A stretch of 36,077 bases of DNA from Candidatus Gastranaerophilales bacterium (GTDB lineage Bacteria > Cyanobacteriota > Vampirovibrionia > Gastranaerophilales > JANQFW01): positions 1-36,077 of the forward strand of contig JANQHM010000176.1 of NCBI GenBank assembly GCA_028282645.1. Direction: 5' to 3'. The position numbers and the translations under genes are program-made. The notes under the pieces were generated by a model. The model did no database searches, had not been told where the DNA came from, and saw nothing but the letters and a program-made list of their open reading frames with translations. Positions 7,263-26,923 of this stretch are shown here, one piece after another (position 1 is the stretch's first letter; every line of letters begins with the position of its first letter).

Positions 7263-8942
7263 TTATGGCTTGATCCCAGTCCTTTCATTGATGTTATTAG
7301 TGCCGTTTGGTTTATCTTTATAATCAGACGAGTCAGTAGTATTCATAGGGTCAGTAGTATCATTAAGGTCATCAGGGTCAATAGAATCAGGTGGCATTTT
7401 TTCTGGTGGAAGTTGATCAACAACCTCAACCGGTTTTTCGTATGCTTTAGGGTCAATTACACATATATTATTTTCTTTTTTTCCATTGAGAGAATCGCAT
7501 AGGGCATCGTTATTATAACTACCTGTAAATATTTCAAAGAAGTTACCTTCTAAATATACTTCTATTTTTTTTGCAATATCATCTTTAACTTCTTGACTTA
7601 TATTTGGGTCATTATAAATTTCTTCTAATTTTTCTTTTATAGCTTTTAATTTAATAATATTGTTCGTTGTTGTATCAGGGTTAGTAATAATATTATATCC
7701 GTTGTTTATAACATCATAGGTACAGCCCCATCCTGTAGTATTACATGTACCTTCATGTTCTGTACCCGGAGCCCCCATTGGGGTTATTCCTGTTGCTGTA
7801 ATTTCGAACCCGAAAAAGTCAACCCCCATATTCTTGTCCTCAAAACTATCTACCGGTCCATTAGTTACCCATAAATTATAACTGCCAGAAGTATTTTTTG
7901 AACCTAGGTACATTTCTTGTCCGTTTGCAAATTTAAACCAACCATTCCATAATTCTTGTGTTATGGACATACTACGCGAGTCCTTTTGTTTTACTGTAAA
8001 AGGAGTGTCATAGCTGGCCTTATCCTCTATATAGGAAACAAGATCAAACTCTTTTTCATCTAAGTAATCCCTAAGTATACGATCAAAGAAATCTTTTTCA
8101 TTAATATCTATTGAACCATCTTTATCGATGATGGTTGCAGAAAGCAGCTGTAACCTATCCCAGCCTTGGATAAAAGTTGTTGTGTCTATACTATCGGCTG
8201 ATGATTCTTCTGGTAAAGATTCAACAATCTCAACAATTTCTTCTAATATTGTTTCTCTACTGTCGATTGTATAAGTAAGCTGTTCACCCATTTTAAGTAA
8301 ATCTTTTGTATAAGTTTTTAACAAACTTTTTTCCGGACCTTCTGGTAGTTGATTAAGAATCTTATTTAACTCTGTATATAAATCTTTTGCAACATCACCT
8401 TCTTTTTTTAAATCTACTGCAATATCCAGATCGTTAATTACTTTAAGCAATGGATCATTTTTTCCACTAACAGTGGCTTCGTCTTTTAGTATGTATTCGT
8501 CTATTGTGTCATTATATATTTTTAGTGCCTGATCTAATCCTGAAGTATGAATATTAGTAGTTTCAGTTATTTTTTGAATTTGAGCAATATATTTTTTGGC
8601 AATATAAGCAAGGTCTTTCATGTTACCGGCGGAACCGTTAGTTTCAATTAACTTTCCACCACCTGAGCTACTTCTTATATAGGCTTCAATAGGTGTTTTT
8701 AAAACCTGGCCGCTAAGAGTTAATTCAGTATTTGTTAATAAACTGGGACTTACTTTGGGAATATCAGCTCTACTGGAATTTGATTCAAACATAGCTAATT
8801 TGCCTTTATCCTGGAATATATTTGAAATGTTATCACCAAAGAGAGCAAAAGAAAAAAATCCGACCAAAAGCACCCCTGCGGTAATTAGGCCTATTTCTGC
8901 AGGAGTGGAGCCGTTTTTGTACTTAAAGTTTTTAATACACAT
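7263..8942 (-). CDS. Flp-type prepilin-like surface protein, paralog 1
   Basis: N-term KNFKYKNGSTPAEIGLITAGVLLVGFFSFALFGDNISNIF resembles the Flp prepilin N-terminus followed by a long exported domain; paralog of 9137-11041. Confidence 0.6.
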   Translation of the reverse strand: MCIKNFKYKNGSTPAEIGLITAGVLLVGFFSFALFGDNISNIFQDKGKLAMFESNSSRADIPKVSPSLLTNTELTLSGQVLKTPIEAYIRSSSGGGKLIETNGSAGNMKDLAYIAKKYIAQIQKITETTNIHTSGLDQALKIYNDTIDEYILKDEATVSGKNDPLLKVINDLDIAVDLKKEGDVAKDLYTELNKILNQLPEGPEKSLLKTYTKDLLKMGEQLTYTIDSRETILEEIVEIVESLPEESSADSIDTTTFIQGWDRLQLLSATIIDKDGSIDINEKDFFDRILRDYLDEKEFDLVSYIEDKASYDTPFTVKQKDSRSMSITQELWNGWFKFANGQEMYLGSKNTSGSYNLWVTNGPVDSFEDKNMGVDFFGFEITATGITPMGAPGTEHEGTCNTTGWGCTYDVINNGYNIITNPDTTTNNIIKLKAIKEKLEEIYNDPNISQEVKDDIAKKIEVYLEGNFFEIFTGSYNNDALCDSLNGKKENNICVIDPKAYEKPVEVVDQLPPEKMPPDSIDPDDLNDTTDPMNTTDSSDYKDKPNGTNNINERTGIKP

Positions 8943-9136: not shown

Positions 9137-11041
9137 TTATTGTGAAGCCTGTATATTAATATTTACATTATTCTTGTCATTGTTGTTTGGATTAACGGTA
9201 GAGTCAGGAGCAATATTTGTACTATCATTAGGATTAATTGGTTTCACACTAGTTGTATCAATAATCTCTGGTGGCATTATATCGATAACAGGTGGCGAAT
9301 TAATAATATCTGTGGGCGGAGTATCAATAGGCTTGCTATAAACATTAGGGTCAATAACACATTTGTTATTTTCTATAGTTCCCTGCAAGGTACTACATAA
9401 GGCATCGTTATTGTAACTGCCTTTAAATACTTCAAAGAAATTACCTTCCAAATATACTTTTATTTTTTTAGCAAGATCTTCTTTTGTTTCTTGAGCAATA
9501 TTTGGATCATTATAAATTTCTTCTAATTTTTCCTTTAATTTTATTAAATTTTGATATTTAAGAAGTGTTGTACTTGTACTACTGAATGTATTGTTGTTGG
9601 ATAATTTAGCCATGTCACTGGTACATCCATATCCGGTAGTGTTACATGTACCCTCATATTGTGATCCCGGATCTCCCATAGAAATTATACCTGTTGGAGT
9701 TACTTCAAATCCAAATAAGTCGGTTCCGATAGTCATAGGGTCAGTAGATGCAGTCAATGTTACCCAAAGTTTATGATAGCCGGTAACAGGATCTTTTGTA
9801 CCTACAAACATTTCTTGTCCGTTTGAAAATTTAAACCAGCCATTATATGTTTCTGTCGAACCGGTGAATATTTGAATATAACTGCTGCTGCTACTACTGC
9901 TTGATGATGATGAACTTGAACTGCTAGAGCTTGCACTGCTTGATGATGAGCTTGAACCGTTACCTGAGCTGCTTGCACTGGCACTACAAGCAGTTGTGGT
10001 ATTTATATCTACAATATCTCCACTTGCGCTTGCAATACAGCCGTTTGTAGCTCCATATGCATATATTGATGACTCTACAAGATCAAATTCTGATCCGGTT
10101 AAGTAATTTTTTAGATAGTCATATGCGTAGTCTGGAGGCGTAATTGTAACTTCAGTAGCTATAATAGTATCAGATAACAAGTTTAACCTGCCTATACCTT
10201 GTCCAAAAATATTAGTAAGGCTAGTGTTAACTAGTGTAGAAGAAGATGGGGTTGTATCATTTAAAGCAGGGTCAGTATTGGCACCGGTTGTAGTAGTGTC
10301 TTGAGCAGTATCATTTATAACTAGCTCAATTATTTCTTCATAAAGCAGTTGTTTGTTTCTGCTATCTACAAAATAAGTAATCTGTTTGCCCATATTTAGT
10401 AAATCATTTACATATGTTTTTAAAATAAATTTTTCCGAACTATCAGGTAATTGATTAAGGGTACTATCCAATTCTTTTGATAAAATTTTTGCGGCATCAC
10501 CTTCCTGTGCCAGGTCTATAGCAAAATCCAGTTCATTAATTATTTTAATCAGAGGATCTTTTGTACCGCTAACTATTGAATCATCTTTTGCTATATATTC
10601 ATCAACAATATTATTAAATGACTTTAATGCATTATCCAGACCCGAAGTATCAGCATTAACTCTTTTAGAGTTTTCTTGAATTTGAACTATATAATTTTTT
10701 GCAATATAAGCAAGGTCTTTCATGTTACCTGCAGATCCGTTTGTTTCAATTAAATTGCCTCCTCTGGAAGTACTTCTTATATATGCTTCGACAGGAGTTT
10801 GCAAAGACTGATTATTTAAAAATACTTCAGTGTTTGATAATAAATTGGGGTTAACATTAGGAATGGAAGCTCTGCCTGAATTAGATTCAAACATTACTAA
10901 ACTGCCATTATCTCGAAAAATTTCTCCAATGCTACCACCAAAGAGGGAATAAGCAAAAAAGCTTACTAAAAAAATTCCGGCTGTAATTATACCAATTTCA
11001 CCTATGTTGGAGCCTTTTTTGCAGTTAAAGTTATTACGCAT
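9137..11041 (-). CDS. Flp-type prepilin-like surface protein, paralog 2, with poly-Ser tract
   Basis: CKKGSNIGEIGIITAGIFLVSFFAYSLFGGSIGEIF N-term; shares ESNS.RA.IP, ETNGSAGNMKDLAYIAK, EGTCNTTG.GCT and LEGNFFE.F.GSYNNDALC blocks with paralog 1. Confidence 0.6.
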   Translation of the reverse strand: MRNNFNCKKGSNIGEIGIITAGIFLVSFFAYSLFGGSIGEIFRDNGSLVMFESNSGRASIPNVNPNLLSNTEVFLNNQSLQTPVEAYIRSTSRGGNLIETNGSAGNMKDLAYIAKNYIVQIQENSKRVNADTSGLDNALKSFNNIVDEYIAKDDSIVSGTKDPLIKIINELDFAIDLAQEGDAAKILSKELDSTLNQLPDSSEKFILKTYVNDLLNMGKQITYFVDSRNKQLLYEEIIELVINDTAQDTTTTGANTDPALNDTTPSSSTLVNTSLTNIFGQGIGRLNLLSDTIIATEVTITPPDYAYDYLKNYLTGSEFDLVESSIYAYGATNGCIASASGDIVDINTTTACSASASSSGNGSSSSSSSASSSSSSSSSSSSSSSSSYIQIFTGSTETYNGWFKFSNGQEMFVGTKDPVTGYHKLWVTLTASTDPMTIGTDLFGFEVTPTGIISMGDPGSQYEGTCNTTGYGCTSDMAKLSNNNTFSSTSTTLLKYQNLIKLKEKLEEIYNDPNIAQETKEDLAKKIKVYLEGNFFEVFKGSYNNDALCSTLQGTIENNKCVIDPNVYSKPIDTPPTDIINSPPVIDIMPPEIIDTTSVKPINPNDSTNIAPDSTVNPNNNDKNNVNINIQASQ

Positions 11042-11436: not shown

Positions 11437-12129
11437 TTAATTAACTAAGCCAAACATTTGCATCATAGCTAGTATAAACGGTGGAATACCGGCAAATTGA
11501 TCTTGACATTGATCATCGCCATATTCATCATTTTTTTCAAATAAATAAGGATGGTCCTTTTTAAACTCTTCCAAATCCTCTTTGCTAATAATCTCATCCG
11601 GAGTACCTTTAGGATTTTTTGCTGTATCCAGGTCTTCAAGAAGTTTCGGATTATCCAGCAAGACCTTTGCGGCTTCTACTAATTCCGGTGAATATTTCCC
11701 ATCTTTGTTTTTTGCGATGGCCTTTAGATCACCATTACCCATCAATCCATCTTTATCCTTTTCTCCGTTTCTAGCATTTTGTACTTGATCAAAATTTTCT
11801 ATGATTAAATCTAATGCTGTTCCTACATCCATTTTTTTATTTTCACTTTCGACTTTATTACAGGTTCCACCTAATAAGGAGAAAAACATCATCATTAATG
11901 GATTACCTTGACATCCTCCCATCATAGACATCAGTATCATCATTATCATTGAATCAGAAGTATTTTCATTTTCTCCCATCATGGACATCATCATCATCAT
12001 TAACGGATCAGGAGTACCCTGCCCCGGAAAAATTGAACCTCCAAAATTTGCTTGACCACCAGAAGAATAACTCTGCCCATACGGTACCATCATAAATGGG
12101 TTAAACCCAGTATTCGAACAATTACACAT
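11437..12129 (-). CDS. Met-rich MCNC protein with EF-hand-like/helical C-terminal domain, paralog 1
   Basis: MCNC start, DPLMMMMMSMMG and NPLMMMFFSLLGG segments, then ALDLIIENFDQV..GNGDLKAIAKNKDGKYSPELVEAAKVLLDNPKLLEDLD; RBS AGGAGG. Confidence 0.75.
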   Translation of the reverse strand: MCNCSNTGFNPFMMVPYGQSYSSGGQANFGGSIFPGQGTPDPLMMMMMSMMGENENTSDSMIMMILMSMMGGCQGNPLMMMFFSLLGGTCNKVESENKKMDVGTALDLIIENFDQVQNARNGEKDKDGLMGNGDLKAIAKNKDGKYSPELVEAAKVLLDNPKLLEDLDTAKNPKGTPDEIISKEDLEEFKKDHPYLFEKNDEYGDDQCQDQFAGIPPFILAMMQMFGLVN

Positions 12130-12407: not shown

Positions 12408-13007
12408 TTATATATCAAACTTTTTATCTACAAAACTAGGATTCTCTTCAATATATTTATCGATGTCTCCTATTGTAAACTTTTCATCTTTGTCATTGTC
12501 TTTGTCATTTGCTTTTTCCATATTGTCAAATATGTCACGATGATTTAACAGGAACTGTGCAGCGTCTTTTAACTCTTGGCTATAACCATTAGTATCAACT
12601 ATTTTTTGTAAATCGCGAATGTGTACTTTTTGATTAGCCTTACCATCTATTGTGTCTATTATCGAAAAATTAGCTTTAATTATTTCTAATGCTTCGCGAG
12701 CAGAAATTTGGTTATTATCATCTTCTTCCAGATCTTCTTCTGCTGGCTCGTATGATTTTTCTACATTACTTTTTTCCGTATTTTGATTTTTTTTCCCGCA
12801 TATTGATCCCATTAACCACATCATGGGGATCATCATAGGATCAAAGCTTCCAGCTTGTCCATTATTATATTGAGGCACACTAGTACCATTACATGTTGTT
12901 GAAAAAATTGAGCTTGTACAGGGTGTTTGATTAAAACCCTGGCCTGTTGAGCTTAAAGGCCAATTACCGAAAAATGGGTTCATTCCGGCAGTTGCACAAT
13001 TACACAT
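12408..13007 (-). CDS. MCNC protein, paralog 2
   Basis: MCNCATAGMNPFFGN, DPMMIPMMWLMG, ALEIIKANFSIIDT..RDLQKIVDTNGYSQELKDAAQFLLNHRDIFD; same AGGAGGTATTATATG translation start region as paralog 1. Confidence 0.75.
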   Translation of the reverse strand: MCNCATAGMNPFFGNWPLSSTGQGFNQTPCTSSIFSTTCNGTSVPQYNNGQAGSFDPMMIPMMWLMGSICGKKNQNTEKSNVEKSYEPAEEDLEEDDNNQISAREALEIIKANFSIIDTIDGKANQKVHIRDLQKIVDTNGYSQELKDAAQFLLNHRDIFDNMEKANDKDNDKDEKFTIGDIDKYIEENPSFVDKKFDI

Positions 13008-15422: not shown

Positions 15423-15635
15423 ATGATAAAAAGTTTTTATTTTAGTAAAAACTTTGATTTCTGAATTTGCCTGATTTTGTTAATACTTTTTTAATTGTAA
15501 AAAAAAATTAAGTTTTAGATATATTTTTTTAATAATAGCAATTTTTTTTTGTGTTCTTGTTTTAATATAATCGAAAAGGGAAAAATAAATTTATGATAAT
15601 ATAGACAAATTTTGTTCGGAGGTTATAACATAAAA

Positions 15636-16913
15636 ATGGTTACTATTGAAAAACCACCTGTAAGAGAGAGAGCATCAAATGACGATGTATCCGAGGGGAT
15701 TGAAGTGCTAGATTTGCAGGACAAAAAAATTGTTACAAAAAAAAATTTGCATCGTATTGATATAAGCGAGCTGCCAAGCAAGCTGCCAGACTTTGATGAT
15801 TCAAATGAAACAAAGGATAATATTCTTGCAAACTGGTTAATAGAATGGATTGAAGAATCATTCAAGAAAGGAAAAGTTCATGTAAATGAATTATTACCAA
15901 AGAAAAATGTCCTTGCTGCTCATTTAGGAATTAGTATAGGCACTGTTCAAACAGCTATCCGTTATATTGAAGACAAAGGTTACGTTGAATCAAAACAAAG
16001 AATTGGTACCTTTATACGTGATTATACGCAGCCGGTTGCCCAATTAAGAAAGCAAACCTCTAAAAGAGAGCAAGCAGTTCTTGCCTTAAAGAAAATTATT
16101 ATTACAAATGGTTATAATATTGATGAGCCTCTTCCTTCATCAAGAGAACTGGCTAAAATAATTGGAAGTGCACCTAATACAACTTGCTTGGCTTTAGAAT
16201 ACTTAGCCAGTAATGGTATTCTTGAATCTAAAGGCTCTAGGGGGAATAAAGCCAACTGGGTGTTAAAACAAATTCCTGCATTCAATAAAGAAAAATTAGC
16301 AACTGATGTAGTATTAGATTCTGATACGTTAGTTGATCAAGTGGAAAGAGATTTAAAAGAATTAATAAATAAAAGATACGAAGTAAATGATAAGCTTCCC
16401 TCTCATTTTGAATTAGCTGAAATACTTAAAGTAAGTATAAAAACTGTTCACGATGCAATGAAAAGATTAGTGGCTCAGAATATTTTAAGATCAAAACGAG
16501 GACGCTACGGTACTTATATCTTAAGAATGCCTTCTGATTTACAAACTGCTTCGGGCAAAGAAAATGCTATATTTGCCCCGGCAGAGGATGCCAGCTTGTA
16601 TAACTACGAAAAAATAGAATGCCATTTAAAAGTACTAATTAAAGAAAATTACAAAGTTGGTGATAAATTACCTGCAATGGGCAAACTGGCCGGTGAATTA
16701 AATGTAAGCAGCAATACAATAAGAAAAGCTCTTCAAAGATTATCTGATGATAACATCGTTAAATTTTCCAGAGGAAGATACGGCGGTACATTTGTTACAC
16801 AGATACCCTTGGAGTCTTTTGAAGATTTAACACAGTTTACTTGGCTGGCAGTTAACCAAGAACATATGTCCGCTTATAGTAATGGTATATCAAGTAATGA
16901 CGATTCTAGGTAA
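15636..16913 (+). CDS. Transcriptional regulator with four tandem GntR-type winged helix domains
   Basis: Four repeats of the LP-x(3)-LA-x(2)-L-x-VS-x(2)-T-V-x(2)-A-x(2)-L-x(4)-I-x-S-K-x-G-R-Y-G-T type; no recognisable effector domain. Confidence 0.88.
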   Translation: MVTIEKPPVRERASNDDVSEGIEVLDLQDKKIVTKKNLHRIDISELPSKLPDFDDSNETKDNILANWLIEWIEESFKKGKVHVNELLPKKNVLAAHLGISIGTVQTAIRYIEDKGYVESKQRIGTFIRDYTQPVAQLRKQTSKREQAVLALKKIIITNGYNIDEPLPSSRELAKIIGSAPNTTCLALEYLASNGILESKGSRGNKANWVLKQIPAFNKEKLATDVVLDSDTLVDQVERDLKELINKRYEVNDKLPSHFELAEILKVSIKTVHDAMKRLVAQNILRSKRGRYGTYILRMPSDLQTASGKENAIFAPAEDASLYNYEKIECHLKVLIKENYKVGDKLPAMGKLAGELNVSSNTIRKALQRLSDDNIVKFSRGRYGGTFVTQIPLESFEDLTQFTWLAVNQEHMSAYSNGISSNDDSR

Positions 16914-17171: not shown

Positions 17172-19511
17172 ATGGTTAAAGCATATTTGTATCGAAAAAA
17201 ACGCTATCCGAGTTTGTATAAAAAGCTTTTGCCGGAAGCTGAACTTATAAAGAAAAAAGAATCTTTACTGAGAAGAATAAGTAAAAAATTTTCAGAAAAT
17301 TATAATTTAAAAGAAGTTGTAAAAATATTATCTGAAGAAGTGTCCAGGGAATTTGACTTTGAAAACCTGGTTTTTCTGGAGCTTTTTCCCAGGTTTGAAG
17401 GCAAAGTAAGAATCAAGAGTGAATATGAAAATTTTGCATCAGTTAATGGTGATAAAATTATAAATCTGAATGCGGATGATTTTCAGCTGCTAAGTGAAAC
17501 TATTTTTAAAGATCAGCCAAGTTTAATAATTGATAGTATAAATAATAGTAAATTTTCAAAACAGTTTAAAAATAGTTGCAGAAAGCAGGGGATAAACTTT
17601 GCAGCTTTTTTCCCGGTAAGAAGTAAAAATGAAATATGGGGTCTTATTGTATTTACAGGCAAGTCTTACAGATATCTTTATCCGCCTTTAGTTGAACTGT
17701 TAAAGGGCTTATCTGATGAAATGTTTTTAATGATAAAAAATGCAAAACTTCTTACAACTTGCGAAGCTTTGTTTGAAAGGGAAAGTATTCTTAAAAATAT
17801 AACTAATAAAACTCTTAGTTGCAAAAATCTTACTTACGCACTAAATAGCATATCAGAAGAAATAGCTAGGATTTTTGATATTGATACTGTGGCTATAAGG
17901 CTTTTTGATAAGACATTGATGACTTTTTCCGATACACTTGGAGAATATCGACGAAGTGAAGATATACCTTCAGTAAAAGGAAAATTTTTGAATAAAAAAA
18001 ATCTTAATGACTTTATATGGAATAAACTTTTTATAAATTATGAATCTATAATTGTAGATGACATAAATAAAGCAGACCTCCCCGAAAACATAAAGAACAG
18101 TCTGTTGGATCTGAATGTTAGGTCTGCTGTTTTCTTTCCTATTTTGTATAAAGAAGAGCCCATGGCAACTATTTTCCTTGCAAATACCAGAGAAACTTAC
18201 CCTATTAGAAAAGACTTGTATGAGTTTTTGATACCTATTGCCAATCAACTGGCTGTTTGTATAAACTTATTTGAGGCTAATGAAAAGTTAACGCAGTCAC
18301 TTGCTGTTGAAAAAACTACAAAAGAATTGATATTTAAGTTAAAGGAAGATGATCATCATGACAAAATTTTTAGCTCATTTTTACAGCCTTCTCTGGAATT
18401 ATTTGATGTAGAAAGAAGTATGCATTTGCACTTTGATAGAGACCAAAATATACTTGTAAATCTCGAAGATTTAAAGAATCCTGCTTTTACAAAACTTTTA
18501 AATAAACAGATTCTTGATTCAAATAATACTATAGAATTTATATTAAACAGTAAAAAAAATATATGGGCAGTTAATAATGTTGAAACTGATATAAACAATG
18601 AAAAACTTAAAGAATTTCTGCTCGCAAATAATATTAAAGCTTTTCTTGCACATTATAATGCTTGTATTTGTGAAGAATGTTATGCCCCGGCATTAGAAAA
18701 ATTTAATAAATATGCAGTTAATCTTATTTGTTCTTCAACACCCAGAATTTGGCATTCTTCTGAAATAGAAAGCTTTAGGCTTATAGCCGAGACCATTACA
18801 CTGATTTACAGGCAAATGTCTCAAAGAAAAGAGATTGAATATACTAAGAAAACTTTTCTTGCTACCCTTACTCATGATTTGAGAAGTCCCATAATGGGTG
18901 AACAAAAAGCTCTTGAATATATAATTGCTAAAAAACCCGAAACTTCTTTAAGCAGCTTTGTTGAATTTTTGCAGGATATGTATTATACAAACCAAGATTT
19001 GCTTAATATAGTAAATAACATACTTATGGTTTATCATTATGAGTCAGGCCAAATAGATTTAAATATCAGCAGAGCAGAAATTAAGGATATAATAGATGCT
19101 TCTGTCCGTTCTGTTCAACACCTTGCAAAAGAAAAACAGACAATAATAAATGTAAAATACGAAGATACGATTTCTTTGGTCAGGTTGGATAAAAATCAGA
19201 TATCTAGAATTCTTACGAATTTGATAAGTAATGCTGTAAAACATAATCCTCCAGGTATAAATATAGATATTGAAGTTAAAAAATCAGATAATGATATACG
19301 TTTCTCTGTAATAGATAGCGGCAAGGGAATACCTGAGGAAAATAGAGAATGTATTTTTAACAAATATCCTACCCGCAAAGGGCAAATAGGTACAGGACTC
19401 GGGTTGTATCTTTCAAAGCAAATTGTTGAAGCTCATAACGGTAAAATATGGTTTAAAACACAAGAAGGTAAAGGTACAGGCTTTACTTTCAGCATACCTT
19501 TGAACCTATAA
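17172..19511 (+). CDS. Multi-GAF sensor histidine kinase
   Basis: At least two GAF-like regions, H-box FLATLTHDLRSPI, N box NLISNAVKHNP, G boxes DSGKGIPEE and GTGLGLYLSKQIVEAHNG. Confidence 0.93.
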   Translation: MVKAYLYRKKRYPSLYKKLLPEAELIKKKESLLRRISKKFSENYNLKEVVKILSEEVSREFDFENLVFLELFPRFEGKVRIKSEYENFASVNGDKIINLNADDFQLLSETIFKDQPSLIIDSINNSKFSKQFKNSCRKQGINFAAFFPVRSKNEIWGLIVFTGKSYRYLYPPLVELLKGLSDEMFLMIKNAKLLTTCEALFERESILKNITNKTLSCKNLTYALNSISEEIARIFDIDTVAIRLFDKTLMTFSDTLGEYRRSEDIPSVKGKFLNKKNLNDFIWNKLFINYESIIVDDINKADLPENIKNSLLDLNVRSAVFFPILYKEEPMATIFLANTRETYPIRKDLYEFLIPIANQLAVCINLFEANEKLTQSLAVEKTTKELIFKLKEDDHHDKIFSSFLQPSLELFDVERSMHLHFDRDQNILVNLEDLKNPAFTKLLNKQILDSNNTIEFILNSKKNIWAVNNVETDINNEKLKEFLLANNIKAFLAHYNACICEECYAPALEKFNKYAVNLICSSTPRIWHSSEIESFRLIAETITLIYRQMSQRKEIEYTKKTFLATLTHDLRSPIMGEQKALEYIIAKKPETSLSSFVEFLQDMYYTNQDLLNIVNNILMVYHYESGQIDLNISRAEIKDIIDASVRSVQHLAKEKQTIINVKYEDTISLVRLDKNQISRILTNLISNAVKHNPPGINIDIEVKKSDNDIRFSVIDSGKGIPEENRECIFNKYPTRKGQIGTGLGLYLSKQIVEAHNGKIWFKTQEGKGTGFTFSIPLNL

Positions 19512-19583
19512 TATATTTTTAAAAATTTTTATTATTTATTTTAAATTTATTAAAAGCCTTTTGGGGAATATATTCAAAATTAA

Positions 19584-19671
19584 AACACCTTAAAATTGTT
19601 ATAAGTATTATAAGCTCTACTGGTATACTTTAAATTTATTTAGAAACATCAGAACTCGATATACAATACTT
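19584..19671 (+). repeat. Dispersed repeat family R2, degenerate copy 3 (upstream of kaiB)
   Basis: CACCTTAAAATTGTTATAAGTATTATAAGCTCTACTGG..ACTTTAAATTTATTTAGAAACATCAGAACTCGATATACAATACT resembles copies at 26969 and 32782. Confidence 0.5.
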
Positions 19672-19691
19672 AGGAAAAAATTAAAAAAATT

Positions 19692-19967
19692 ATGAACAAG
19701 AAATACATATTTAAACTTTTTATATACGGGCAATCTGATGATTGTAAAAATGCAATAAAAAACCTGACAAAAATATGTGAAGAAAAACTTCACGATAATT
19801 ATGATTTAAAAGTTATAGATATTAAAGAAGCTCCTGAAGAGGCGGAAGAAGAAAGATTGATCGCAGTTCCAACGCTCATAAGGGAATTGCCTGCACCCGA
19901 GAGAAGGATAATAGGCAACTTTAAAGACAAGGATAAGGTTCTGGCAGCTTTAGATCTTACTGAATAA
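19692..19967 (+). CDS. kaiB: KaiB circadian clock-like protein
   Basis: FKLFIYGQS...LKVIDIKEAPEEAEEERLIAVPTLIRELPAPERRIIGNFKDKDKVLAALDL, canonical KaiB pattern. Confidence 0.95.
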   Translation: MNKKYIFKLFIYGQSDDCKNAIKNLTKICEEKLHDNYDLKVIDIKEAPEEAEEERLIAVPTLIRELPAPERRIIGNFKDKDKVLAALDLTE

Positions 19968-19986
19968 TTGCAAAAAGAGGTTAACT

Positions 19987-21528
19987 ATGGAAAAAACATA
20001 TTTTAGTGCAGCCGAAAATGAAGTAAAAAAGGTAAAAACTCATATAGAAGGATTTGATCAAATATCACGAGGAGGAATTCCATATCAAAGAAATACATTG
20101 ATTGCAGGTACATCCGGTTGCGGGAAAACTATTTTTGCAATGCAGTTTTTGGCTAATGGTATTACTTGTGATAATGAAAATGCAGTTTTTGTAACTTTTG
20201 AAGAGCCACCAAAAAACATAATTGAAAATATGAGGTCTTTTAACTGGGATATAAAAAAATGGGAAGAAAAAGGAGAATTTATTTTTGTTGATGCTTCTGT
20301 AGCTCATGAGCCGGTACCAACCGGAGAATATAGTTTAATAGCTCTATTAACTCGTATTGAAAATGCAATTAAAAAAGTTAATGCAACTAGAGTGGCCATA
20401 GACTCGCTAGGCTCTCTATTATATCAATTTCAGAATGATAGAATTATCAGACGTGAGTTGATTGTACTGGTAAACAGATTAAAACAGCTCAACGTAACAG
20501 TAGTCATGACTGCAGAAAGAGTAAGTGAATACGGTGAAATTTCAAGATATGGCATCGAAGAGTTTGTTTCTGATAATGTAATTATTTTAAGAAATAATAT
20601 TATCGAGGAAAAAAGGCGTAGAACCGTTGAAATATTAAAATATAGAGGAGCCTTTCATCAAAAAGGTGAATATCCTTTTACTATTCTTCCCAGAAAGGGA
20701 ATAGTAGGAACTTCTCTGACTACACTTAAAATGAATCAGCCGGTATCTGCAAAGCGTATTACATCAGGTGATAAAAAACTTGATAAAATGTGTAACGGAG
20801 GCTTTCTAAGCGGATCAATCGTTTTAATCTCGGGAGCTACAGGAACAGGAAAAACACTCTTGGTTACAGAATTTTTAAAAGGTGGTGTAGAGGCAGATGA
20901 AAAAAGCTTATTATTTGCATTTGAAGAAAGTAAGGAGCAAATTGTCCGCAATGCCAACGGATGGAGCGTTGACTTTAATAAGATGGAAAAAACCAATAAG
21001 TTAAAAATAATTGCTTTATACCCGGAAGTTTTAAACCTTGAAGAACATCTTATTGAAATTAAAACACATATTGAGAATTTTAAACCACAAAGAATAGCAA
21101 TAGATAGTTTATCCGCATTGGAAAGAATGTCATCTCCTACAAGTATTACAGAATTTGTAATAGGGCTGACTTCTTTTATTAAGGAGAAACAAATTAGCGC
21201 AATGATAACTATCAGTGCACCGACAATTATGGGTGCAGGAACTATAACGAGTGCTCATATTTCAACAATTACCGATTCAATAATTCTTTTAAGATATTTG
21301 GAACATAGAGGGTGCGTAAAACGTGGAATTACAATATTAAAAATGCGCGGTTCTTTCCATGACAGAGAAATAAGGGAGTTTTCAATAGATGATAAAGGTA
21401 TACATATTAAAAAGCCTTTCAAAAACATCCAGGGCATTTTAAGTGGCCATCCGGTTGAATACATGTATGAAGTTGTTGTTAATGAAAAAGGTATTTCTAA
21501 GGAAATTTCCAATGTTCTGGATAACTAA
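19987..21528 (+). CDS. kaiC: KaiC double-domain ATPase/kinase
   Basis: Two RecA-like domains (GTSGCGKTIFAMQFL; GATGTGKTLLVTEFL), catalytic EE pairs (VTFEEPP; FAFEESKEQ), phosphosite region SAHISTITDSIILLRYLEHRG. Confidence 0.97.
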   Translation: MEKTYFSAAENEVKKVKTHIEGFDQISRGGIPYQRNTLIAGTSGCGKTIFAMQFLANGITCDNENAVFVTFEEPPKNIIENMRSFNWDIKKWEEKGEFIFVDASVAHEPVPTGEYSLIALLTRIENAIKKVNATRVAIDSLGSLLYQFQNDRIIRRELIVLVNRLKQLNVTVVMTAERVSEYGEISRYGIEEFVSDNVIILRNNIIEEKRRRTVEILKYRGAFHQKGEYPFTILPRKGIVGTSLTTLKMNQPVSAKRITSGDKKLDKMCNGGFLSGSIVLISGATGTGKTLLVTEFLKGGVEADEKSLLFAFEESKEQIVRNANGWSVDFNKMEKTNKLKIIALYPEVLNLEEHLIEIKTHIENFKPQRIAIDSLSALERMSSPTSITEFVIGLTSFIKEKQISAMITISAPTIMGAGTITSAHISTITDSIILLRYLEHRGCVKRGITILKMRGSFHDREIREFSIDDKGIHIKKPFKNIQGILSGHPVEYMYEVVVNEKGISKEISNVLDN

Positions 21529-21544
21529 TTTATTAATTAAGTAT

Positions 21545-22555
21545 TTATTTTAATGCTTTTTCAACTACTAATGCTTCTTTAGCTTCTTTTTCCAATTTGT
21601 TAAAAATTTCTTTTACTGAGAGAATTTCATTGTACTTTTCTATATTTCCGCCGGAAAAGAATAAACCTTCATCCAGGTTGCCTTTTTGTGCTTGATGTAA
21701 AGCATTCATTATACAAAAAGATCTACTGCATTTTTTTAAACAACTTTTGCAGGATTTAACACAAACAGAAGGATCACCACTTAAAAATTTTTCTACAAAT
21801 TTAGTTTTAATAGCTCTTGCCTTCAGCCCAACCGGACTTTCTATTAAAACTAAATCTTTAGCCTTGGATTTTATATATAATTTTTTAAACTCTTCTGCCA
21901 CTTCGCATTCTTTGCTTAAAACAAATCTGGTGGCCATTTGTACACCACTGCAACCTAATTTAAGCATTTCTATAATATCTTTACCGGAAGTTATACCACC
22001 AGCTGCTATAATAGGAATATTTTTTTTAAAGTAACCTTCTGTAGCTGCGAGAGCATTTTTAATTTCCGGAATCAAGTCTTTAATAGTTTTGCTGGTTCCC
22101 AAATGGCCGCCAGCTTCTCCACTTTCTACAATTATTCCGCTTGCGCCAAGTTTTTTAGCAATAATAGCAAGTTTAGTAGAACTAACAATTGGTATAATAG
22201 GAATATTATATTCTTGTCCAACATTAAATATATCTCTGGAGAATCCTGCTCCAAAAATAACTAGATCAATACCTTCATTCATGGCAGTATGTACAAGATC
22301 TTTAAAATCTTTAGCCGCAAACATTATATTTATAGCAAGCAAACCGTCATTATTTTCCATAAGTTCTCTTGCTTGCTTTATTTGTGTGACCAGTTCATCT
22401 TTTGTTAAGCCCGATGCTGCAATAACACCGACTCCGCCACAATTTGCCACAGCCGCCGCAAGTTTTGCAGTGCTTACTCGAATAGCCATACCGCCTTGTA
22501 TAATAGGTTTAATAGCTTTTAGAGATTCATTTATGTTTAGCGTTGGAAATATCAT
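21545..22555 (-). CDS. Nitronate monooxygenase/FabK-like FMN oxidoreductase with Cys-rich C-terminal segment
   Basis: PIIQGGMAIRVSTAKLAAAVANCGGVGVI, SGEAGGHLG, PIIAAGGI, GVQMATRFVLSKE; CVKSCKSCLKKCSRSFC cluster. Confidence 0.9.
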   Translation of the reverse strand: MIFPTLNINESLKAIKPIIQGGMAIRVSTAKLAAAVANCGGVGVIAASGLTKDELVTQIKQARELMENNDGLLAINIMFAAKDFKDLVHTAMNEGIDLVIFGAGFSRDIFNVGQEYNIPIIPIVSSTKLAIIAKKLGASGIIVESGEAGGHLGTSKTIKDLIPEIKNALAATEGYFKKNIPIIAAGGITSGKDIIEMLKLGCSGVQMATRFVLSKECEVAEEFKKLYIKSKAKDLVLIESPVGLKARAIKTKFVEKFLSGDPSVCVKSCKSCLKKCSRSFCIMNALHQAQKGNLDEGLFFSGGNIEKYNEILSVKEIFNKLEKEAKEALVVEKALK

Positions 22556-22617
22556 TATTAATTCTAACTTTCATAATTTAATTAAAGTAAAACAAGAACT
22601 ATTATACAATCAATTCT

Positions 22618-23625
22618 CTAGTTGGTTACATCCCATTTTCCGCAAGAACCTCCCCATCTTGCAATAATATTTCCTTTAACTTCTTTGGGGCTCTTAGGAT
22701 TAGGTGATTCGGGCTCACCTTGCAGAATAGTAATAACTTCACAGGAATTTGAGCAATCATTACATTCATGAGTTAAAGAATTAAACTTGAATTCGCTCAC
22801 TTCCCAGCCTTTAAACCTAGTTGGAGTATTTGTAAATTCATAATTTTCCATTGCAAGAAGTGCTGCACCTATTGCGCCCATTGTTTGATGATTTTCAGGT
22901 ACAATAATTTTTTGATTTAAAGCTTCTTCAAATGCTCTAACCATACCTATATTAGTAGCAACACCACCTTGGAAGACAACAGGACCTAAAATTTCTTTCC
23001 CTAAGGCAAGATTGCTAAGGTAATTTCTTACCAATGCCTGACATAATCCGTATAGCAAATCAGGAATAGGATAGCCCAGCTGTTGCTTGTGAATCAAATC
23101 ACTTTCTGCAAAAACACCGCATCGACCTGCAATTCTTGCAGGTGATTGGGACTTAAGTGCAGTAGGCCCGAATTCATTAATTGGCACGTTCAATCTGCTT
23201 GCTTGCTGATCAAGAAAACTGCCTGTTCCTGCAGCACATACTGTATTCATTGCAAAATCCGTTACTATTCCGTCTCTTAATAAAATAATTTTACTGTCTT
23301 GCCCGCCTATTTCTAAAATAGTTTGAACTCCAGATACTGTTATACTTGCAGCAACGGCATGTGCAGTAATTTCATTTTTGATAACATCAGCTCCGATTAA
23401 TGCTCCGGCAAGATTTCTACCACTTCCCGTAGTTCCAACGCCTAAAACTTCATACTTATCATTTAGTTTTTCTAAAAGATTTATCATACCTTTTTGTGCA
23501 GCAATGACAGGTTTACCAGATGTTCTTAGCATTGTGCTTTCTATATAATTACCTTGTTTATCAACTAATGCCAGCTTTGTAGTAACCGACCCAACATCTA
23601 TACCCAAGAATGCTTTTTTTGACAT
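22618..23625 (-). CDS. BadF/HgdC-type acyl-CoA dehydratase activase (ASKHA ATPase)
   Basis: FLGIDVGSVTTKLALVD, GTTGSGR, EIGGQDSKII, NTVCAAGTGSFLDQQA, GRCGVFAESD, FQGGVATN. Confidence 0.93.
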   Translation of the reverse strand: MSKKAFLGIDVGSVTTKLALVDKQGNYIESTMLRTSGKPVIAAQKGMINLLEKLNDKYEVLGVGTTGSGRNLAGALIGADVIKNEITAHAVAASITVSGVQTILEIGGQDSKIILLRDGIVTDFAMNTVCAAGTGSFLDQQASRLNVPINEFGPTALKSQSPARIAGRCGVFAESDLIHKQQLGYPIPDLLYGLCQALVRNYLSNLALGKEILGPVVFQGGVATNIGMVRAFEEALNQKIIVPENHQTMGAIGAALLAMENYEFTNTPTRFKGWEVSEFKFNSLTHECNDCSNSCEVITILQGEPESPNPKSPKEVKGNIIARWGGSCGKWDVTN

Positions 23626-25720: not shown

Positions 25721-26923
25721 TTATTTTAATACATTTTTATAAATATAATCATTTATAATGCAATAAATACCTTTTAATGATTTATTTTGTGCTAACTTAA
25801 GGCAATCCTCATATTCAGGTTTTGCCGTTATTATTTTTCCTTGGTTATTTTTACCTATTTTTATTCTTATTTCTCCCAGATTTTCAATGTTAGCGGTAAC
25901 TATTTCTCTGTCCAAAGTACTTCTATCAATACTATAGCTTCTGATTCCAAAGGAGGTTGTTTCTTTAAAGATTATATTTTCCAGATTATTTTTATATTTT
26001 TGCTTGCAAATAACTTTTAAAACACATGCCGGACGTGATTTTTTCATTATCACAGGAATTATATAGGCTTCCAGAGCGTTATTTTCATAAAGTTTATTCA
26101 ATACATTTTCGTATAGTTCAGGCTGCATATCGTCAATATTGGTTTCCAAAACTAAAATATTATCCTGATAATTAGTATTTTCCTCTGCTTCTCCTATGGT
26201 CAAGCGCAGCACATTAGGAAGATTTTCTAAATCTTTTTTTCCTGCACCGTAGGCAACTTTGTTAATCTTGCTCAATTTAGGATATGTTATGAATTCATCG
26301 CATATTGTTGTTAAAATAGCTGCGCCGGTAGGAGTTAACAGCTCTGCTTTTTCTATGCCTTGATTATCAATCGGCCAGTGTGACTGATTTATTAAGTAAA
26401 GCGTTGCCGGTGCAGGTACCGGTATTGTGCCATGTGCGCATTTTACCAATCCGCTACCTGTATTTACAGGGCTAATATAAACTTTATCTATACTTAAAGA
26501 TGTATAAAGGATAGAAAAGCCTACGATATCAACAATTGCATCAATTGCTCCAACTTCATGGAAATGAATTTCATCGAGTGATTTTTGATGAATATGCGCC
26601 TCTGCTTTTGCCAGGTTTGTAAAGATTTTTTTTGCTAAATTTTTTGCCCCAACTGATATTTCAGAGGAATCAATAATATTTACAATACAGTTCAAGCCTC
26701 TGTGGTGATGTTCGTGTTTTTCCAGTTCTACGCTAGCGTCAGTTGCTTTTATACCTTTTTTTAGGGTGTTTGATATTTTTATTTTATATTGATTGTTAAT
26801 TTCTTTTATTTTTTTTAATTCTTTAAAAAACCAGTCCTGGTCAATATCTAAATCCAATAGAGCCCCCAAAATCATATCGCCGCTGGCTCCTGCAAAGCAT
26901 TCAAAAAAAGCTACTTTTTTCAT
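25721..26923 (-). CDS. larC: LarC nickel insertion protein family
   Basis: FFECFAGASGDMILGALLDL, FHEVGAIDAIVDIVG, NTGSGLVKCAHGTIPVPAPAT, LTPTGAAIL, ETNIDDMQPE. Confidence 0.94.
   Translation of the reverse strand: MKKVAFFECFAGASGDMILGALLDLDIDQDWFFKELKKIKEINNQYKIKISNTLKKGIKATDASVELEKHEHHHRGLNCIVNIIDSSEISVGAKNLAKKIFTNLAKAEAHIHQKSLDEIHFHEVGAIDAIVDIVGFSILYTSLSIDKVYISPVNTGSGLVKCAHGTIPVPAPATLYLINQSHWPIDNQGIEKAELLTPTGAAILTTICDEFITYPKLSKINKVAYGAGKKDLENLPNVLRLTIGEAEENTNYQDNILVLETNIDDMQPELYENVLNKLYENNALEAYIIPVIMKKSRPACVLKVICKQKYKNNLENIIFKETTSFGIRSYSIDRSTLDREIVTANIENLGEIRIKIGKNNQGKIITAKPEYEDCLKLAQNKSLKGIYCIINDYIYKNVLK

What the first reader, a model, noticed from the sequence alone, without database searches (positions are those of the whole stretch)
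19692..21528. Complete kaiB-kaiC pair in what looks like a non-photosynthetic genome
KaiB and a two-domain KaiC sit 20 bp apart. KaiC keeps both Walker A motifs, both catalytic Glu pairs and the adjacent Ser-Thr in HISTITD that aligns with S431/T432 of Synechococcus KaiC, with the T426-equivalent also present (TITSAHIST). It could therefore carry out an ordered phosphorylation cycle. No photosynthesis genes are in the window. If the host is a Melainabacteria-like organism, this is a possible clock, hourglass or stress timer in a dark relative of cyanobacteria.
Basis: partly seen in the sequence, partly recalled or inferred. Interest (0 to 1): 0.8.

Follow-up and report, generated by a model that had tools for sequence, protein, structure and literature searches.

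The report
KaiB-KaiC timer in dark cyanobacterial cousin
A non-photosynthetic relative of cyanobacteria (its sister species comes from a coral-skeleton sample) keeps an intact, actively maintained pair of clock-type genes, kaiB and kaiC, but has no third clock partner KaiA, so it probably runs a simple hourglass-like timer rather than a free-running clock.

Summary
In detail: kaiB (19692-19967) and a full two-domain kaiC (19987-21528) lie 19 bp apart, with both Walker A motifs, both Glu pairs and the Ser-Thr phosphosite. The host is a Melainabacterium of the order Gastranaerophilales. It has no photosystem reaction-centre gene, and the kaiBC contig is genuinely its own. A sister species, from a Porites lutea coral-skeleton sample by its name, has the same locus; dN/dS is 0.055 (kaiC) and 0.07 (kaiB).

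"Complete clock" is not supported. KaiC belongs to the widespread KaiC3-type clade, not to cyanobacterial KaiC1. In 58 related loci a KaiA3-type protein accompanies kaiBC, usually just upstream of kaiB. Both genomes of this family lack it; the window's genome also lacks KaiA and SasA. KaiC lacks the C-terminal E-x-x-R-L-x-x-(L/M)-F motif found in all KaiA3-containing loci. Phosphosite residues R393 and D/E427 (Synechococcus numbering), conserved in 80/81 and 81/81 relatives, are T and S here. RpaA and RpaB are present, and a GAF-rich histidine kinase sits where KaiA3 usually is.

Best reading: a KaiA-less KaiBC hourglass or energy timer, probably signalling through that kinase. Rhythm, phosphorylation and output are untested. 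New variant of a known kind.

The parts
19692..19967 (+). kaiB, 91 aa, presumed fold-switching KaiC partner
   Evidence: PF07689 E 7.9e-25; about 30-55% identical to KaiB of other kaiBC loci; conserved residues kept except T62V, D79N, L80F in T. elongatus numbering; dN/dS 0.07 against the sister species
19987..21528 (+). kaiC, 513 aa, two-domain KaiC3-type autokinase/ATPase; phosphosites S426/T427
   Evidence: TIGR02655 574 bits over the 546 cut-off; motifs; tree; dN/dS 0.055
21247..21267 (+). phosphosite region of KaiC, T421 to T427 (TSAHIST): S426/T427 kept, the E/D427 equivalent replaced by S422
   Evidence: alignment of 81 relatives, 81/81 E or D at this position; residue numbers
21148..21150 (+). 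codon of T388, where relatives have R393, a contact of both phosphosites in S. elongatus KaiC
   Evidence: 80/81 relatives have R; contact from PMC3161067
21433..21525 (+). KaiC A-loop and C-terminal tail; lacks the ExxRLxx(L/M)F motif present in all KaiA3-containing loci
   Evidence: tail score -11.2, against leave-one-out scores of 11 or more in all but one KaiA3+ locus and a shuffled 99th percentile of 7.9
17172..19511 (+). GAF-rich sensor histidine kinase, 779 aa; candidate input/output kinase
   Evidence: PF01590, PF13185, PF00512, PF02518; syntenic in the sister species, 79% identity, dN/dS 0.13; no KaiB-like (SasA) domain
19512..19691 (.). 180-bp gap between the kinase and kaiB, where KaiA3 lies in related cassettes; no coding remnant
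   Evidence: six-frame translation full of stops; KaiA3 directly upstream of kaiB in 47 of 49 assessable named loci
15612..16913 (+). protein with four tandem GntR winged-helix domains, conserved upstream neighbour; role in the system unproven
   Evidence: PF00392, 4 stretches; syntenic in L060, dN/dS 0.07

Best explanation
This is a functional two-protein KaiB-KaiC timing module of the KaiC3 type, in a lineage that has most likely lost KaiA3. Inferred mechanism: the KaiC hexamer autophosphorylates S426/T427 without a KaiA partner, to a degree set by the cell's ATP/ADP or redox state. Phosphorylated KaiC recruits fold-switched KaiB onto the CI ring, which promotes dephosphorylation. Without KaiA to synchronise and re-start phosphorylation, the system measures elapsed time after an external change (an hourglass or damped timer) instead of oscillating freely. 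The neighbouring GAF-rich histidine kinase is the most likely signal carrier, possibly to the RpaA/RpaB regulators that the genome keeps. Shown here: gene identity, motif conservation, no detectable KaiA, KaiA3 or SasA, absence of the tail motif, substitutions at the phosphosite, purifying selection, presence of RpaA and RpaB. Inferred: phosphorylation, hourglass behaviour, kinase output, loss (rather than primary absence) of KaiA3, and the ecological cue.
For: Identity. Purifying selection between two species: kaiC dN/dS 0.055, kaiB 0.07, like neighbouring metabolic genes at 0.03-0.05. Only one KaiB-domain protein, so no SasA. No KaiA over cut-off. The KaiA3 profile finds nothing at E<=10 in both family genomes but rings in four control genomes at 1e-30 to 1e-48. 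KaiA3 directly upstream of kaiB in 47 of 49 related loci; its modelled C-terminal domain has KaiA C-terminal structures at the top of the PDB list. KaiC tail motif in 54/54 KaiA3+ loci and absent here. RpaA ortholog (PDB RpaA E 1e-84, next best 1e-38) and RpaB (360 bits over the 330 cut-off). Literature: cyanobacterial KaiC1 and KaiC3 and archaeal KaiC proteins incorporate phosphate without KaiA (PMC5520375, PMC6989803); the KaiA-less R. sphaeroides pair is an hourglass driven by ATP/ADP (PMC10076222); KaiA-less S. elongatus gives a damped, KaiBC-dependent oscillation (PMC7205874).
Against: No expression, phosphorylation or rhythm data exist for this organism. R393T and E427S could alter or abolish the normal two-site cycle: R393 touches both phosphosites in S. 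elongatus KaiC (PMC3161067) and R393C shortens the period to about 15 h (PMC7205874, PMC6712028). KaiC here lacks the coiled-coil C-terminal extension that makes the R. sphaeroides KaiA-free system work. The kinase-to-RpaA link rests on gene position only. A KaiA substitute too diverged for the profile could exist, and both genomes are drafts.
Confidence: 0.5

Rival explanations
1. Non-clock stress or energy module: KaiC is an ATPase scaffold that, with KaiB and the adjacent GAF kinase, sets stress or redox resistance without measuring time, as proposed for Legionella kaiBC.
For: Altered phosphosite contacts (R393T, E427S), no KaiA, and a GAF sensor kinase next door. KaiB/KaiC homologs in Legionella and Pseudomonas act in stress responses (cited in PMC11372060).
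Against: Both phosphosites, T426, R385 and all catalytic residues are kept in both species, and KaiB is under strong constraint, as expected if phosphorylation-dependent KaiB binding still matters.
Confidence: 0.3
2. Self-sustained oscillator without KaiA, or with an unrecognised activator such as the GAF kinase standing in for KaiA3 at the same gene position.
For: The kinase occupies the position that KaiA3 takes upstream of kaiB. KaiA3-KaiB3-KaiC3 of Synechocystis oscillates in vitro (PMC11372060).
Against: The KaiA3 profile scores the kinase at noise level (E 0.54, 3.9 bits), and the KaiC tail, the presumed docking site in relatives, has no motif.
Confidence: 0.12
3. Vertical inheritance: kaiBC comes from the ancestor shared with oxygenic cyanobacteria (a question of origin, separate from function).
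For: The host shares RpaA and RpaB with cyanobacteria. One Melainabacterial KaiC clade (this family plus Obscuribacterales-type) is not rejected (dlnL 1.0, p-AU 0.50).
Against: KaiC groups with a multi-phylum KaiC3-type clade (SH-aLRT 97-98) apart from cyanobacterial KaiC1. Holding it with KaiC1 costs 44 lnL units, p-AU 0.057. No other sampled member of the order has an ortholog. Holding it with cyanobacterial KaiC3 is equally allowed. The branch is long, so the origin stays open.
Confidence: 0.15
4. Contaminant contig or decaying acquisition without function.
For: The genome is a 307-contig draft with 2.75% contamination; the KaiC branch is long.
Against: Thymidylate kinase on the same contig is closest to 83 genomes of the same order before any cyanobacterium, at about 48-62% identity. 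A second species has the same gene order at 81-87% DNA identity. dN/dS is 0.055-0.07.
Confidence: 0.03

Closest known systems
Synechocystis KaiA3-KaiB3-KaiC3 system (Nat Commun 2024, PMC11372060)
   Same: KaiC3-type KaiC with Ser-Thr phosphosites and a KaiB partner; the window KaiC falls in the clade that also holds the Crocosphaera, Microcystis and Aphanothece KaiC3-type proteins (56-58% identity)
   Different: No KaiA3 found in the genome; no KaiC tail motif; R393T and E427S; a GAF kinase sits in the KaiA3 position
Rhodobacter sphaeroides KaiBC hourglass (PMC10076222)
   Same: Two-component KaiB-KaiC without KaiA
   Different: R. sphaeroides KaiC is KaiC2-type (35% identical) with two Ser sites and a coiled-coil C-terminal extension that the window KaiC lacks
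Synechococcus elongatus KaiABC clock
   Same: Catalytic motifs, S431/T432, T426 and R385 equivalents; RpaA and RpaB present in the host
   Different: No KaiA and no SasA; KaiC about 52% identical to the KaiC1 of T. elongatus; R393 and D427 replaced
kaiBC of Obscuribacterales-type Melainabacteria (L041-L047, L110)
   Same: Same class; kaiB-kaiC adjacent with a histidine kinase nearby
   Different: KaiC 50-54% identical; at least two genomes have KaiA3 and the tail motif

Membership tests
KaiC (circ_KaiC) | two RecA-like KaiC domains with both Walker A motifs and catalytic Glu pairs | tested here: met
   TIGR02655 574 bits over 546
KaiC (circ_KaiC) | Ser-Thr dual phosphosite plus T426 and R385 equivalents | tested here: met
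   S426/T427, T421, R380
KaiC (circ_KaiC) | R393 and D/E427 around the phosphosite (conserved in relatives, not a formal family criterion) | tested here: not met
   T388 and S422 in both family members; 80/81 and 81/81 conserved elsewhere
KaiC3-type | groups outside KaiC1 and KaiC2 in a tree | tested here: met
   grouping with KaiC1 costs 44 lnL, p-AU 0.057, so strongly disfavoured but not formally rejected
KaiB | KaiB domain with conserved core | tested here: met
   PF07689 E 7.9e-25; below the NCBI circadian KaiB equivalog cut-offs; T62V, D79N, L80F
KaiABC clock | KaiA gene | tested here: not met
   best PF07688 hit in the genome 15.7 bits, below the 22.2 cut-off
KaiA3-KaiB3-KaiC3 oscillator | KaiA3 gene (and the KaiC C-terminal motif that accompanies it) | tested here: not met
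cyanobacterial clock output | SasA with KaiB-like domain | tested here: not met
   only one KaiB-domain match in the genome
cyanobacterial clock output | RpaA | tested here: met
   L149 ORF, PDB RpaA E 1.3e-84 against next 1.2e-38
Rhodobacter-type KaiBC hourglass (KaiC2) | KaiC C-terminal coiled-coil extension of about 50 aa | tested here: not met
   KaiC is 513 aa and ends about 24 residues after the A-loop Gly
circadian clock | about 24-h free-running, temperature-compensated, entrainable rhythm | not testable with these tools
   needs protein or culture experiments

The most novel reading that the evidence does not exclude
A reversal of clock evolution: a lineage of dark cyanobacterial relatives has dropped KaiA3 from an ancestral KaiA3-KaiB-KaiC oscillator, lost the KaiC docking tail and rewired the phosphosite contacts (R393T with E427S), leaving an hourglass read out by a GAF kinase and RpaA, timed by the daily oxic-anoxic cycle of its habitat.
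Probability: 0.3. Interest if true: 0.72.

Novelty: new variant of a known kind. Interest (0 to 1): 0.55.

Why it matters
Melainabacteria are a main source of evidence on what the cyanobacterial lineage had before photosynthesis. Published work reports RpaA and RpaB there but, in the papers I could search, no Kai proteins. A KaiBC pair without KaiA, next to genomes of the same class with KaiA3, gives a natural comparison for what KaiA adds: oscillator against hourglass. The link between KaiA3 and a short KaiC C-terminal motif is a directly testable docking prediction across about a dozen phyla.

Tried and rejected
Generic RadA/KaiC-like ATPase: rejected.

KaiA3-like domain hidden in the adjacent kinase: hmmsearch without filters gives noise only.

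KaiA3 elsewhere in the genome: not found, with positive controls.

Weak KaiA hit at C60 (15.7 bits): below cut-off and not followed further; the KaiA3 profile does not see it.

Remnant of KaiA3 in the 180-bp gap: none.

Contamination: argued against. The FabK-like neighbour was uninformative because the order members sampled lack close homologs.

Phylogenetically independent test of the KaiA3/tail association: 51 rows with both and 16 with neither, fully concordant, with 8 changes on the best tree, but only 2 pairs on well-supported branches, so not significant by itself. Exceptions: L045 and L047 were left out of that count; they keep the motif although no KaiA3 was found in their genomes. 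L068, L076 and L106 keep partial motifs.

tRNA-Ile called inside kaiC on the minus strand: judged a false positive.

Full report
OBSERVATION. The window holds kaiB at 19692-19967 and kaiC at 19987-21528, both on the + strand and 19 bp apart. KaiB matches PF07689 at E 7.9e-25, and KaiC matches PF06745 in both halves at 1.7e-117. KaiC passes the curated circ_KaiC equivalog model (574 bits against 546) and aligns end to end with solved KaiC structures.

HOST. G000 is a 3.11-Mb draft, 96.8% complete. It sits in the same phylum as cyanobacteria and the same order as many 1.8-2.0 Mb genomes. The only other member of its family held, G585, has KaiC 91% identical. Its KaiC coordinates match record JANQFW010000027.1, titled 'Candidatus Gastranaerophilales bacterium isolate PL23b_bin.2'. 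PL23b is a Porites lutea skeleton sample in a paper that reports Vampirovibrionia among the dominant classes of such samples (PMC9868349). The window's own sample is unknown. No photosystem reaction-centre protein is found, while the Synechococcus control rings. Thymidylate kinase on the same contig is closest to 83 genomes of the same order before any cyanobacterium, so the contig belongs to the host.

CONSERVATION. The gene block GntR4 - kinase - kaiB - kaiC - FabK-like - activase is syntenic in the sister species at 81-87% DNA identity. dN/dS is 0.055 for kaiC, 0.07 for kaiB and 0.13 for the kinase. The pair is maintained by selection.

DISTRIBUTION AND ORIGIN. In 382 genomes of the class, KaiC orthologs occur in this family and in one other family of large genomes (f46; 52-54% identity). 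That family includes a named Candidatus Obscuribacterales MAG (L110, identical to L046) and has adjacent kaiB and a kinase. The closest other KaiCs are from Thermodesulfobacteriota, Chloroflexota, Spirochaetota and cyanobacterial KaiC3-type loci of Crocosphaera, Microcystis and Aphanothece. I call the latter KaiC3-type because they lie outside the KaiC1 clade and, where kaiB is adjacent, have a KaiA3 gene upstream. In trees the window KaiC falls, on a long branch, in a multi-phylum KaiC3-type clade apart from KaiC1. Holding it with KaiC1 costs 44 lnL (p-AU 0.057). Holding it with the other Melainabacteria (p 0.50) or with cyanobacterial KaiC3 (p 0.62) is allowed. The data do not settle vertical against horizontal origin.

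KAIA3. An iterated profile, started from a receiver + C-terminal-domain protein beside kaiBC in an Obscuribacterales genome, found the same C-terminal domain in 58 loci. It lies directly upstream of kaiB in 47 of 49 assessable named loci, over about a dozen phyla, and weakly recovers the probable canonical KaiA genes upstream of KaiC1 loci (E 1e-3 to 2e-2). An AlphaFold2 model of the domain (pLDDT 90) has KaiA C-terminal structures as its first six PDB matches (Foldseek probability 0.99-1.0, TM about 0.5-0.7; E only 0.07-0.17). This matches KaiA3 of Synechocystis, which was reported in only five non-cyanobacterial genera (PMC11372060). Neither genome of the window's family has it at E<=10, while controls ring at 1e-30 to 1e-48. 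No remnant lies in the 180 bp between kinase and kaiB.

KAIC TAIL. All 54 KaiA3-containing loci with a readable tail have a C-terminal E-x-x-R-L-x-x-(L/M)-F-like motif. The window (score -11.2) and its sister (-1.7) lack it; both scores lie within the range of shuffled tails. Fisher p for the association is 1e-9 with a stricter pattern, but the rows are related. On the tree the two traits agree in all 67 scored rows, with 8 changes, of which only 2 are on well-supported branches. I infer that the motif is the KaiA3 docking site, by analogy with the KaiA-binding C-terminus of KaiC1. The pattern was defined on the KaiA3-containing set, so an independent set should be used to confirm it.

PHOSPHOSITE. 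Two positions, R393 and D/E427 in Synechococcus numbering, are T388 and S422 in both family members but R in 80/81 and D/E in 81/81 relatives (the window numbers printed are 3 too high). R393 contacts S431 and T432 in S. elongatus (PMC3161067), and R393C shortens the period to about 15 h (PMC7205874, PMC6712028). The joint change suggests a rewired phosphosite; this is inference.

OUTPUT. There is no SasA (one KaiB-domain protein only). RpaA (L149, contig C225) and RpaB (L147, contig C250) are present, in line with published Melainabacteria (PMC3787301, PMC4040986, PMC5877343). The adjacent kinase has a GAF domain recognised by Pfam and, by eye on the sequence, one before and one after it, then HisKA and HATPase. 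Its kinase core resembles kinases just upstream of KaiA3-KaiB-KaiC in L067 and L098, so an ancestral order kinase - KaiA3 - KaiB - KaiC with KaiA3 deleted is plausible but not shown.

VERDICT. A real, constrained KaiB-KaiC pair in a dark cyanobacterial relative, KaiC3-type, probably secondarily without KaiA3, best read as an hourglass or energy-state timer (0.5). It may instead be a non-timing stress module (0.3). Literature searches found RpaA/RpaB but no Kai report for Melainabacteria; only open-access papers were searchable, so a report elsewhere cannot be excluded.

Noticed in passing
L046, L061-L064, L067, L070-L075, L077-L080, L082-L105, L118 and others, upstream of kaiB: KaiA3-type proteins (receiver or larger sensor N-terminus plus KaiA-like four-helix C-domain) are directly upstream of kaiB across about a dozen phyla, far wider than the five non-cyanobacterial genera reported; some are part of proteins of up to about 660 aa (L088, L074, L077).
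   Followed up: partly
KaiC C-termini of the same loci: A short ExxR(L/I/M)xx(L/M)F motif at the extreme C-terminus of KaiC tracks the presence of KaiA3 and is a candidate docking helix.
   Followed up: partly
window 15612-16913 (+): Protein made of four tandem GntR-type winged-helix domains with no effector domain recognised; conserved upstream of the kinase-kaiBC block.
   Followed up: no
window 7263-8942 and 9137-11041 (-): Two paralogous large proteins with pilin-like hydrophobic N-termini and no Pfam match; one carries a long poly-serine linker.
   Followed up: no
window 11437-12129 and 12408-13007 (-): Two paralogous proteins starting MCNC with EF-hand-like acidic stretches; one has a weak NolX match (21.8 bits, below cut-off).
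   Followed up: no
window 21545-23625 (-): FabK/nitronate monooxygenase-like protein and an acyl-CoA dehydratase activase, convergent with kaiC and syntenic in the sister species; the FabK-like gene had no close match in the other order members sampled.
   Followed up: partly
window 25721-26923 (-): LarC-type nickel insertion protein (PF01969).
   Followed up: no
window 20603-20692 (-): ARAGORN tRNA-Ile call inside kaiC on the opposite strand, probably a false positive.
   Followed up: no
L049, L052, L057, L059 (f46 family genomes): Divergent KaiC-like genes of the f46 family, several with in-frame stop codons.
   Followed up: no
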